Below are positions 37,601-44,429 of a DNA stretch of 64,000 nt, one piece after another. The notes under the pieces are model-generated. The model saw nothing but the letters and a program-made list of their open reading frames with translations. It did no database searches and was not told where the DNA came from. Where the stretch lies: contig NZ_JABTEZ010000002.1 in the NCBI RefSeq assembly GCF_015711605.1, positions 1,922,001 through 1,986,000 of the forward strand, written 5' to 3'. The DNA comes from Planomonospora sp. ID67723. Its GTDB lineage: Bacteria; Actinomycetota; Actinomycetes; Streptosporangiales; Streptosporangiaceae. The first letter of the stretch is position 1; every line of letters begins with the position of its first letter. The translations under genes and the position numbers were made by a program.

Positions 37601-37785
37601 CGCAGCGGCTCGTGCCGGCGCACCAGCAGGCCGAGCGCGCGTTCCAGCAGCTCGGGGTCCACCGGCCGCATCCAGGGCAGGGAGGAGCACGCGGCGATGT
37701 TGTACACCGCCAGCCCCGGCTGCAGCTCGCTCAGGAACCAGATCCGCTCCTGGGCGAACGAGGCGGGAAAGACATCGCCGGTCAA
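34660..37785 (-). CDS. NRPS module C-A-T, predicted Gly
   Basis: A 1,041-residue nonribosomal peptide synthetase module. The condensation domain (residues 5-435) has the active HHxxxD motif (His143, His144, Asp148). The adenylation domain (about 445-960) includes [11 protein letters not shown] and [10 protein letters not shown]. Binding-pocket residues read from alignment to GrsA are D-I-L-Q-F-G-L-I-W-K, nearly the classic glycine code. The carrier domain has Ser981 in DVGGHSLLG. The start is TTG at 37785: AAGGAG lies upstream and TTG overlaps the previous TGA (TTGA). There is no thioesterase, so the chain must pass to another protein, probably the Ser module encoded just upstream. Confidence 0.93.
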
Positions 37786-40700
37786 CGGCTCTCCTTCGAT
37801 GAGTCCTTCAGGCAGTTGCGGATCTCGCCGGTGATGGGGGCCAGGGCGTCGGTCTCGCCGATGGTGGCCAGCCAGCCCCACTGGTCCAGCGCGTGGTAGA
37901 GGCGGTAGAGGGCGACGCGCACGGCCCAGTCGGCGGGCAGCTCGCCGTATCCGGCCAGCAGTTCCCGGCGGCGCACGGAATCGTCCCTGACCGCGAAGTA
38001 GTCGGTTTTCGCCAGGTCCATGAGAGGGTCGCCGCCGAGGGCGTTCTCCATGTCGATGACGCCGGTCAGGTGCCATGACCCGTCGCGTTCGGCGACCATC
38101 ACGTTCCGCTCGTGGAAGTCGTGGTGGCACAGGACGGGCGTGCGGCAGCGCGCGAGCAGGTGGCGCCGGGCCGCGACGTACTCGACGATCTCGGCGTGCA
38201 GGGCCGGATCGCCGCCGAACTCGGCGAACTGGGCCGTCCGCAGGTCGAGCTGCCCGCCCAGATAAGCCTCGTTGGTCGGCTCGCGGACCCCGTCGACCGG
38301 GCCGAACTCCTGCAACTCCACCCCGTGCAGGGCGCGCAGCGCGGTCCCCATCTCCCGGTACAGGCCCGCGATCACCGGCTCGGGCAGGGCCCCGGACACC
38401 TCCGACAGAGGTCTTCCCTCGACCTTCGTCATGACCAGGTAGGCGTGGGGGAGGTCGCGCCTGGACTCGTCCCACTTCACGACGGCGGGCGCCGGGACGC
38501 CGCTGCCGCGCAGCAGGTCGTAGACGAGCATCTCCTTGCGGAGCCTGGCGGTGAACAGGTCGGGGTAGAGCTTCACGATCAGGTCCGGGTGCGGCAGGCC
38601 CCGGTCGGCGCAGCGGACCTCGTAGACCGCGCTGATCTCCCCGCCGGTGCGCAGCACGACCCGCTCCACCTCGGTGCCCAGCAGGGCGGACGCCTTCTCC
38701 GGCGACAGCGGCATGGTGAGCGCCTTGGCGAACGCGGGCGCGCTCCAGGCCAGGCTGACCCGGTTGCCCGCGCGCTCGCGCAGGGCCTGGGCCCCCACCA
38801 GGTCGTCGGGCGTGGCCTCGGGCACCTCGTCGTCGAACCGGGCCAGTACGGGGATCCGCATGGAGACGAGCACGTGTACGGCGATACCGAGGCCGAGCAC
38901 GATGTACATGAAGGCGATCCCCCGCCCCTCGCCCACGCCGATCACGGCGCCCACGGTCGGGGCCAGGGCGCCGCCGGGGGCCAGCAGCGGCTCCAGCAGG
39001 CGCTCGCCCAGCGGGGCGACCACGGCCATGCCGAGCGGCAGCGTCGACCACGAGATCATCTGGTTGACCGCCATGACGCGGCCGTGGAAGCGCTGCGGCA
39101 CCTTCACGTGCACGATCGTCATGAAGATGCCGTTGACGATCGAGAGACTGCCCCACAGGCCGAAGGCGCCGACGCCCACGATCAGGGGGGAGGCGTGCAG
39201 GCCGGTCACGATGGCGAAGAGGCTCAGCAGCAACGTGGCCAGGAGCACCCCGCGCATCCGGCGCCGGCGCGGGCCGCCCCACAGCGCGATCACCAGACCG
39301 CCCAGGGTGGCGCCGACGCCGCCCGCGAAGGAGACCTGCCCGGCGGTGGAGAGCGTGGCGAAGGACAGCACCAGCGGCGAGATCGACAGCAGCAGCGCCG
39401 CCAGCATCACGTTCAGGACCGCGAAGTAGAGCAGGGCGGCCCGCAGGTGGCGGTTGCCGAACGACATCCGGAAACCGTTGGCGATCTCCGCCGTCAGCGT
39501 CTCCCTGCGCACGTGGGCCATGGTGGCGGGGAAGCGGACGAGCGCCAGGACTCCCAGCAGCACCGCGAAGCTGGCCACGTCGACGGCGAGGATGCCGCTC
39601 AGGCCGATGGAGGACAGCAGCGCCACGGCCACCAGCGGCGCGACGAACTGGGAGGTGCCCATCACCATCTGCACGATGCCGGCCGCGTGGCCCAGATACT
39701 GCTTGGGCACCAGTTGGGGGAGGGCGGTGGTGAAGGCCAGACGCTGGAAGATCAGGGCGACCGACAGGCAGGCGGTCAGCGGGTAGAAGTGCCAGATCTC
39801 CAGATTCCCCGTCCACAGCAGCGCGCCCAGGACGAGCTGGGTCCCGCCGGCCAGGCAGGCGCCCGCGGTCATCATCCGGCGTTTGCCCGCCCGGTCCACC
39901 AGCGCGCCGACCAGCGGTGCCGCCACCACGCCCGGCATGATCGAAAGCGCGGTGAACAGGGCGAAGTCCACCAGCGACCCGGTCGTCAGATAGATCCAGA
40001 CGGGGATCGCGAAGTCGGTGATCGCGGTGCCCGTCATCGAGACCAGCTGGGCCAGGGCGACGATCATGAAGCGCCGCATGCTGGGGTCGGGCGCGGCCCG
40101 CCCGCTCGCGCGCGCCGGAGCCGGGCGTGCCGTCCCGCCCGGCCGCGGCGCGGGCGGGCGGGTGCCCGGGGCCTCCGGGACGGCGTCGGGGGCCTTTGCG
40201 GGGAGGGCGGAGGTCTCCTCGATCCACCAGCCCGCGGCCGGGCCGCGTGAGGTGCGGTCGAGGGTGTGCGCGGCGCCGTACCCCATCGCGATGTGGGTGT
40301 TGGTCAGGATCTCCGCCAGGTCCTCGGCCCGGTACTTCAGGAAGTAGTGCCCGGCCTCGTCGAGGATGACCAGAGCCGTCACCGGGCTGAGGAAGTGCCA
40401 CTCCCGGTAGCGCTCGTGGTAGTAGTCCGTCGCGGGGTCCTGCTCGCCGACCACCGAGACGACCGGCGCGCGGAGGGGGGCGATCTCCTCGGCCAGCAGC
40501 CGGGTGAAGCTCTCCTCCGCGATCAGGGTGTCCCGCCGCTGGTTGCGGACCATGAACCTGATCTGCTCCTCGTCGAGCCCGGAGACGTCGTTGCCCATCG
40601 ACTTCATCCGGTTCTCGTAGGCCCGGTCGCCGCGCAGCCGGTCGAGACGGGTCAGCCGGCCCAGAGGTCCCGCGATGCGGCCGGTGGGCCGGGCGAACGG

Positions 40701-43700: not shown

Positions 43701-44429
43701 CCAGTAGTCGAGATCCGCCTCGGCGACCGGGCGCTCGCGCTGCCACAGGGCGTAGTCGCCGTACTGGACCTCCAGGTCCGGCAGGTCGGCCCCGCCGTAC
43801 AGGGCGCGCAGCTCCTCGGTGAGGATCTCGGTGGACCAGCCGTCGGCCGCGATGTGGTGGACCGTGATCAGCAGCGCGTGGTCGTCCTCCGCCAGCCGGA
43901 CCAGGGTCGAGCGGATCGGCGGGCCCTCGGCCAGGTCGAAGGGCCGGGCCGTCTCGGCGCTGAAGATGTCCGCGGCGGACGCCTCGTCGGCGGTGGCGCG
44001 GCGCAGCTCGATGTCGGCGGTCTCCCCGACGAGGACGTACGGGCGGCCGTCCTCGTCGGCGGGGAAGCGCATCCGCAGGCTCTCGTGCCGTGCCACGACG
44101 GCGCGCAGGGCGAGCTCCAGCCGGTCGGGGTCGAGGGGGCCGCGCAGCCGCAGGGAGATCGGGATCGTGTAGGCGGCGCTCCCCGGGGCGAACTGCTCCA
44201 TGAACCACAGCCGCTCCTGTCCGAACGAGAGCGGGACCGGCCGGTCCGGAGGGCGCGGGGGGATGGCGGTGGCCCGCACGGGGGTGCGGCGGCGCAGACG
44301 CTGTTCGAGGAGGGCCCGCTTGGTGTCGGAGAGCCGGAGACTGCTCGAGGACAGGTCGGGCGTGGATGTCACACCTGGCTCACTTTCGGGTGGGCGGCGC
44401 GTTACATCGGATGGAGGACATTCATCCAT
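37782..44429 (-). CDS. NRPS (C-A-T-TE, predicted Ser) fused to MFS transporter and APH phosphotransferase
   Basis: One uninterrupted frame of 2,215 residues. Order: condensation (65-495, HHIAADG), adenylation (510-1025; pocket D-V-W-H-V-S-L-V-D-K, the serine code), carrier (Ser1074), and thioesterase (1140-1380) with nucleophile Cys1213 in YGHCGIGG, Asp in GEQDPATD and His in DEAGHYF. A Pro/Ala-rich linker (to 1450) leads to an EntS/MFS_3-like transporter of about 12 helices (1451-1870). Last is an APH-type kinase fold (1895-2195) with Brenner motif HHDFHERN and metal site [10 protein letters not shown]. Terminal synthesis, export and phosphorylation would thus share one membrane-bound polypeptide. 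The start is uncertain: ATG 44429 lacks a clear ribosome site, and TTG 44444 is an alternative. Confidence 0.9.

What the first reader, a model, noticed from the sequence alone, without database searches (positions are those of the whole stretch)
37782..44429. NRPS terminal module, exporter and phosphotransferase fused in one reading frame
C-A-T-TE, a Pro/Ala-rich linker, a ~12-helix MFS transporter and an APH-type kinase domain are encoded without a stop over 6.6 kb. NRPS/MFS fusions are known. I do not know of one that also carries an intact HxDxxxxN phosphotransferase domain. The arrangement would couple chain release, export and phosphorylation (self-protection, as with Vph/Cph-type kinases, or tailoring) at the membrane.
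Basis: partly seen in the sequence, partly recalled or inferred. Interest (0 to 1): 0.85.

Follow-up and report, generated by a model that had tools for sequence, protein, structure and literature searches.

The report
Peptide synthetase fused to exporter and kinase
One very large bacterial protein joins the last step of building a peptide, a membrane exporter and a drug-kinase-like domain in a single chain; the join is real and kept in related soil bacteria, but what it makes and what the kinase does are still unknown.

Summary
In 297 sampled genomes of the family, 14 in 7 genera have the kinase in a frame of 2100-2410 codons. Both junctions stay in frame and the TE and kinase motifs are kept in 15 of 15. 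A C-A gene follows in 15 of 15. NRPS-TE-MFS paralogues without kinase exist; one gain of a stand-alone-type kinase is the simplest history. The A domains read as Ser (fusion) and Gly (partner). The TE is closest to ObiF1, a beta-lactone-forming Cys-thioesterase. Release, export and phosphorylation thus appear physically coupled; whether the kinase protects the producer, as Cph and ComG do, or tailors the product is undecided. The listings of my ten open-access literature searches showed no such fusion.

The parts
37782..44372 (-). fusion gene C-A-PCP-TE-MFS-APH from the shared GTG start (2196 aa); the open frame reaches 44444
42951..44237 (-). condensation domain (residues 70-498 counted from the TTG)
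   Evidence: Pfam PF00668, 353.9 bits
41376..42890 (-). adenylation domain (519-1023); specificity code read by eye as D-V-W-H-V/I-S-L-V/I-D-K, serine-like
   Evidence: Pfam; nine code positions in 15 of 15 rows, the Lys in 9 of 9; code table recalled, not from a call
41085..41291 (-). carrier protein domain (1052-1120)
   Evidence: Pfam PF00550
40290..41027 (-). thioesterase domain (1140-1385) with Cys nucleophile C1218, D1336, H1366; nearest solved relative ObiF1 TE
40080..40277 (-). TE-MFS linker, Pro/Ala-rich, 12-115 aa in 15 homologues, always in frame
38835..40079 (-). MFS transporter domain (1456-1870), drug/H+ antiporter-like
   Evidence: Pfam MFS_1; NCBIfam TIGR00900 163.9 bits, below its cut-off of 319.6
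38730..38834 (-). MFS-APH linker, 35 aa in 14 rows and 36 in one, conserved in sequence
37785..38729 (-). APH-type kinase domain, H2107/D2109/N2114, D2131, K1958
   Evidence: Pfam PF01636; AF2 model pLDDT 91.4; Foldseek
34660..37785 (-). partner NRPS module C-A-PCP (code D-I-L-Q-F/L-G-L/M-I-W-K, glycine-like by recalled table); its TTG start overlaps the stop of the fusion gene (TTGA)
44605..45954 (+). thioesterase of type II kind, divergent from the fusion gene; membership of the same pathway open
45970..51141 (+). NRPS A-PCP-C-A-PCP; membership of the same pathway open
51138..56654 (+). PKS module KS-AT-KR-DH-ACP; membership of the same pathway open
56730..57836 (-). luciferase-like monooxygenase beside the PKS gene; membership of the same pathway open

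Best explanation
Shown: one conserved open frame carries a terminal NRPS module, a Cys-type thioesterase, an MFS transporter and an APH kinase, and it is followed by a C-A gene that reads as Gly. Inferred: the partner module hands a glycyl chain to the fusion, which adds Ser and releases the chain on its own thioesterase, by an ObiF1-like Cys-thioester (hydrolysis or a strained ring such as a serine beta-lactone). The MFS part anchors the module to the membrane and exports the product. The kinase, on the cytoplasmic face beside the exporter, phosphorylates a hydroxyl of the product, or of product that leaks back, and so keeps it inactive inside the cell, as Cph does for capreomycin and ComG for corramycin. 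The short, fixed linker suggests that the kinase is held in a set position beside the exporter, while the NRPS end is on a floppy tether.
For: Single frame in 15 of 15 sequences, TE and kinase motifs kept in 15 of 15, linker 2 at 35-36 aa while linker 1 runs 12-115 aa. Purifying selection on MFS, linker 2 and APH in nine pairs. Confident APH fold model with antibiotic kinases as best fold matches, among them APH(7'')-Ia at rank 16, which PMC10996006 names as the nearest substrate-bound structure to ComG (passages). MFS part resembles drug and siderophore exporters, MefB 75.5 and EntS 45.4 bits, all under their cut-offs. In ten stand-alone kinase loci inspected, neighbours differ, with transposase-like genes by eye in three, L046, L049 and L060, which recalls self-contained resistance genes. 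In nine of the 14 homologous loci (L042-L045, L101-L105) no further C, A, TE or MFS domain was found in the fetched flanks of about 1.4-7 kb, so the kinase-bearing gene and its partner occur without a surrounding NRPS cluster.
Against: No product, substrate, resistance phenotype or expression is known. The kinase is far from Cph (34 bits) and under every NCBIfam kinase cut-off listed. A biosynthetic kinase would show the same conservation. Hydropathy gave 13 segments, not a clean 12, and the AF2 model of MFS-APH is poor (mean pLDDT 39.6), so the cytoplasmic place of the kinase rests on the usual 12-helix MFS topology. An AAGG before the APH Met leaves room for an internal start. Ser and Gly are read from recalled codes. 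The donor for the Gly module is unknown. In five or more genomes the unit does lie beside other NRPS/PKS genes.
Confidence: 0.45

Rival explanations
1. The kinase is a tailoring enzyme: it phosphorylates the chain or the released peptide, for example the serine hydroxyl, so that the exported compound is a phosphopeptide or loses phosphate to give dehydroalanine. Protection of the producer is not its job.
For: The fused A domain reads as Ser in 15 of 15 rows, which would supply a hydroxyl (code recalled). The kinase motifs are kept in all 15 fused rows, as expected for a step needed for the product. Homoserine kinase is among the weak family matches (20.5 bits, cut-off 271).
Against: Nearest folds are mostly antibiotic-modifying kinases. 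Eight distinct APH-less NRPS-TE-MFS paralogues were read, so such lines exist without a fused kinase, although their products may differ. A kinase after the exporter rather than near the carrier domain is an odd place for on-line tailoring.
Confidence: 0.3
2. The frame is open, but the cell makes separate proteins by internal starts or cleavage, so the coupling has little meaning.
For: Met stands at the start of the MFS part in 14 of 15 rows and near the start of the APH part in 15 of 15; an AAGG lies 8 bases before the APH Met in the 14 rows whose DNA was printed. Cleavage cannot be seen in sequence.
Against: L100 has Leu at the MFS position, and no Shine-Dalgarno-like stretch is evident before the MFS Met in the other 14. 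Linker 2 is conserved as protein, dN/dS 0-0.71 in nine pairs, and both junctions stay in frame in 15 of 15 despite length changes of linker 1.
Confidence: 0.11
3. The APH part is a passenger that came with the fusion and has no use in the pathway, or acts on something unrelated such as an environmental antibiotic.
For: The stand-alone relatives are not tied to NRPS genes in the loci searched.
Against: Catalytic motifs kept in 15 of 15, purifying selection in nine pairs, conserved linker of fixed length. The search was made with the kinase, so fusions that lost it entirely would not have been seen as such.
Confidence: 0.12
4. The open frame is an assembly or sequencing artefact that joins separate genes.
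For: None found; a TAA inside the frame of one APH-less paralogue (G004:C128) shows only that errors or breaks occur.
Against: 15 distinct sequences from separate genome records.
Confidence: 0.01

Closest known systems
NRPS-TE-MFS fusions without APH (paralogues in this genome, G004, G006, G010, G016 and G023)
   Same: Same TE-MFS arrangement; of eight distinct ones read, seven have an MFS part 55-62% identical (L016 37%), and the same seven carry a PDD-x-x-G tail like the start of linker 2; they end 29-80 aa after the matched MFS part.
   Different: No kinase; two of eight have a Ser and not a Cys nucleophile; on a TE-MFS tree seven of them and the 15 kinase-bearing rows fall on two sides of a branch, 100/100 support.
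Corramycin kinase ComG (PMC10996006, abstract and other passages read)
   Same: APH-family kinase encoded in a PKS/NRPS cluster that acts on a peptide and confers resistance; APH(7'')-Ia is a near fold for both.
   Different: ComG is a separate protein; its sequence was not compared here.
Capreomycin phosphotransferase Cph (7f0a)
   Same: Best sequence match among solved structures; acts on a peptide antibiotic (PMC10996006 passages).
   Different: Only 34 bits over part of the domain; under the family cut-off.
ObiF1, obafluorin NRPS (6n8e; PMC6668435, passages read)
   Same: TE best match (108 bits, next 68); Cys, Asp and His pair with ObiF1's by my count, and Ala stands at the other Asp position.
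   Different: ObiF carries an MbtH-like domain (passages); no MFS or APH is mentioned in the passages seen; different substrate.
EntF and EntS, enterobactin synthetase and exporter
   Same: C-A(Ser)-PCP-TE terminal module (EntF model 579.9 bits, cut-off 2400) and an MFS exporter (EntS 45.4 bits, cut-off 324).
   Different: Separate proteins and a Ser-type TE (recalled); EntF scores only 18.8 bits as TE; no kinase (recalled).

Membership tests
NRPS terminal module with type I thioesterase | C, A, PCP and TE domains in order, with core motifs | tested here: met
   Pfam order; HHxxxDG, GGHSL and GHC seen in the translation
MFS exporter (drug/H+ antiporter type) | MFS_1 profile over its cut-off and twelve helices | tested here: inconclusive
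   MFS_1 66.9 bits against 33.4; hydropathy 13 segments; AF2 of low confidence with about 12 long helices
MFS exporter (drug/H+ antiporter type) | export activity | not testable with these tools
   needs a transport assay
APH phosphotransferase superfamily | APH profile over cut-off, HxDxxxxN, second Asp, Lys, bilobed fold | tested here: met
Cph/Vph capreomycin or viomycin kinases | NCBIfam capreo_Cph over its cut-off | tested here: not met
   33.5 bits against 390; Vph itself was not compared
APH(3'), APH(3'') aminoglycoside kinases | NCBIfam equivalog cut-offs | tested here: not met
   43.4 against 205 and 22.2 against 325
ObiF-type beta-lactone-forming thioesterase | Cys nucleophile, Asp in the RifR-like position, no Asp at the EntF position | tested here: met
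   alignment, 15 rows, features as given in PMC6668435 (passages); residue pairing by my count
ObiF-type beta-lactone-forming thioesterase | beta-lactone product | not testable with these tools
   needs an in vitro assay
self-resistance kinase | product phosphorylated and inactivated, producer protected | not testable with these tools
   no product known

The most novel reading that the evidence does not exclude
A make-mask-export machine in one chain: a terminal serine module whose Cys-thioesterase closes a reactive ring such as a serine beta-lactone, passes it to its own exporter, and carries its own kinase as a safety catch that disarms the peptide or its opened form on the inside of the membrane. 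This would be an assembly line with release, transport and immunity built into one polypeptide.
Probability: 0.15. Interest if true: 0.88.

Novelty: new variant of a known kind. Interest (0 to 1): 0.64.

Why it matters
Producers of toxic peptides must make, neutralise and export them without poisoning themselves, usually with separate proteins. Here the last synthetic step, an exporter and a kinase lie in one frame that is kept in seven genera of the sample. It offers a test of whether peptide release and transport are channelled, and a marker for finding an unknown, possibly bioactive, peptide family that would end in Ser. The Cys-type thioesterase makes a strained electrophile a real possibility.

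Tried and rejected
Artefact: rejected by 15 distinct sequences. Siderophore of the bacillibactin/enterobactin kind (Gly then Ser): considered; the Gly-module C domain searched alone listed neither EntF nor ObiF1 at E<=1e-30 (weaker matches not shown) and the TE is not EntF-like, so it is not favoured, nor excluded. C-starter (lipopeptide) start: no match that I know as a starter domain was listed, inconclusive. One pathway with the neighbouring A-T-C-A-T and PKS genes: among the 297 genomes, a PKS-DH match of 250 bits or more occurs in 14 of 14 genomes with the fusion frame and in 28 of 283 without it. A/C domains of that set lie beside the unit in L038-L041, PKS matches lie near it in G000, G001, G061, G148 and G157, and in G016 the thioesterase, A-T-C-A-T, PKS and monooxygenase genes lie together on another contig. 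Against it: in G299, G252, G293, in G157 and in G172, which lacks the fusion, the PKS locus runs on into further NRPS modules; the matches in G103, G127, G078, G157 and G042 are only 50-53% identical; the genomes are related and so not independent. Left open. Phage defence: no PADLOC match. Plasmid spread of the kinase: matches in 8 of 72,556 plasmid records, best 44% identity. An MFS tree with distant outgroups was unresolved and was redone on TE-MFS without them and without L016 and L012.

Limits and rows dropped: the named-genome scan reaches only sequences with one of two kinase motifs and missed the six unnamed fusions. One search scored at most about 7 candidates a genome. Of its 14 fusion genomes, nine were read whole (G000, G001, G016, G157, G299, G042, G222, G252, G293) and G078 in part (L109); G061, G103, G127 and G148 were not fetched whole, and their frame lengths equal those of L041, L043, L042 and L040. 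The kinase alignment A4 used 35 of 51 sequences at hand: L051 and L075 had a stop in the matched stretch, 14 others were left out by my choice to thin close or short rows. In one search rows L038 and L100 were not extracted, so the Gly code rests on 13 of 15. The dN/dS run covered 9 of 15. In the kinase tree the label count left the stand-alone rows out; the grouping is read from the drawn tree.

Literature: ten searches of an open-access library; seven aimed at the fusion, the others at the genera, ObiF1 and kinases. Three returned nothing. In the listings I saw no NRPS-MFS-APH or NRPS-MFS fusion; listings show titles and starts of abstracts only. Papers looked at by term passages: PMC4514598 and PMC8269224 (Planobispora rosea; the fusion not seen in the passages), PMC6668435, PMC11298585, PMC10996006, PMC3924187 (a sensor kinase-MFS fusion family is listed there) and PMC10391617.
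Full report
What is there. The minus-strand frame 37782-44444 is open for 2220 codons. In one chain Pfam finds Condensation, AMP-binding with its C-terminal part, PP-binding, Thioesterase, MFS_1 and APH, all over their cut-offs. The window lies in an 8.3 Mb genome, G000; its nearest rows for this protein are Planomonospora species. The next gene, C-A-PCP at 37785-34660, starts on a TTG that overlaps the stop of the fusion gene (TTGA).

Is it real. A search of 41 genomes found the whole MFS-APH stretch in one frame also in G001 (94%) and G016 (89%). A scan of named genomes with a kinase alignment gave 50 loci: 8 carry the full frame (three Planomonospora, four Planobispora, Rhizohabitans arisaemae), and in 42 the frame shows only the kinase. 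A sample of 297 genomes of the family gave 18 strong kinase matches (374 bits or more; the next was 104): 14 in frames of 2100-2410 codons, in 7 genus labels, and 4 in short frames. A sample of 394 genomes of the class, at E 1e-60, found 6, all in this family. Six further unnamed fused genes were read, which makes 15 distinct full sequences with the window; Pfam confirmed the full order in the window and in four distant ones. A C-A gene follows the fusion in 15 of 15, with a carrier motif in 13 of 13 extracted.

Conservation. In 15 of 15 the TE motif is YGHCGIGG with the Asp and His in place, and the kinase HxDxxxxN and second Asp are kept. The TE-MFS linker varies from 12 to 115 residues but never leaves frame; the MFS-APH linker is 35 residues in 14 rows and 36 in one, and conserved in sequence. 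In nine pairs dN/dS was below one in every domain. The kinase part is therefore very likely used. That it is made only as part of this chain is likely but not shown: an AAGG stands 8 bases before the APH Met in the 14 rows printed.

Where it came from. This genome and others hold NRPS-TE-MFS proteins without a kinase; eight distinct ones were read, six with a Cys and two with a Ser nucleophile. In seven of the eight the tail shares the PDD-x-x-G start of the linker and then ends. On a TE-MFS tree the 15 fused and 7 unfused rows fall on two sides of a branch with 100/100 support. On a kinase tree the 15 fused rows form one fork with moderate support, 83/91, apart from 27 stand-alone ones; long outgroup branches make the root unsure. 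One gain of the kinase is the simplest reading, not a proof. The stand-alone kinases have differing neighbours in the ten loci inspected.

What each part most likely does. The fused A domain reads as Ser and the partner's as Gly, by codes I recall (15 of 15, 13 of 13). The thioesterase is nearest to ObiF1 (108 bits; next 68) and keeps the layout that the ObiF1 paper describes: Cys, Asp after a later strand, a small residue at the EntF Asp place (PMC6668435, passages). A related Cys layout is described for SulM (PMC11298585, passages). So a strained ring is possible, but hydrolysis or macrocyclisation is not excluded. The MFS part resembles drug and siderophore exporters, under their cut-offs. 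The kinase model is confident (pLDDT 91.4) and its best folds are APH(4)-Ia, APH(2'') and, at rank 16, APH(7'')-Ia.

Mechanism. The best reading is coupled release, export and neutralisation by phosphorylation, modelled on Cph and ComG; ComG is a kinase of this superfamily in a PKS/NRPS cluster that inactivates a peptide (PMC10996006, passages). The main rival is tailoring, since the line would supply a serine hydroxyl. Sequence cannot decide between them. The cytoplasmic place of the kinase is inferred: hydropathy gave 13 segments and the MFS-APH model was poor.

Surroundings. Beside the fusion, in the window, lie a thioesterase, A-PCP-C-A-PCP, a KS-AT-KR-DH-ACP module and a luciferase-like monooxygenase. 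Parts of this set lie next to the unit in several relatives, and four such genes lie together elsewhere in G016. In L042-L045 and L101-L105 the unit has no further C, A, TE or MFS domain in flanks of about 1.4-7 kb, and other genomes carry the PKS set as a longer cluster, one of them (G172) without the fusion. Whether the unit finishes that line or works alone is open.

Novelty. Each part is known; the order NRPS-TE-MFS-APH was not seen in the listings of ten literature searches of an open-access library, which is weak evidence of absence. I rate it a new variant of a known kind.

Noticed in passing
window 29120-33643 (-): Hybrid histidine kinase with seven HAMP stretches, GAF, HisKA, HATPase and receiver domains; by eye a similar gene begins after the unit in L040-L043.
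   Followed up: no
window 51138-56654 (+): PKS module with KR before DH (KS-AT-KR-DH-ACP), an order unlike the usual DH-KR (recalled).
   Followed up: partly
window 57478-59337 (+): Radical SAM protein with lower third-position GC (0.84) than most neighbours.
   Followed up: no
window 60708-63818 (-): NB-ARC and TPR protein near the cluster.
   Followed up: no
L031 and L035 against L033, L034, L036, L013, L014, L016: NRPS-TE-MFS paralogues split into Ser-type (YGHSSVGS) and Cys-type thioesterases.
   Followed up: partly
L014 (G004:C128): The open frame around an APH-less NRPS-MFS match holds one TAA.
   Followed up: no
L046, L049: Closely related stand-alone kinases lie near transposase-like genes in two Streptomyces; annotation by eye.
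   Followed up: no
L122 (G172): A longer NRPS/PKS cluster related to the window's plus-strand genes in a genome without the fusion.
   Followed up: partly
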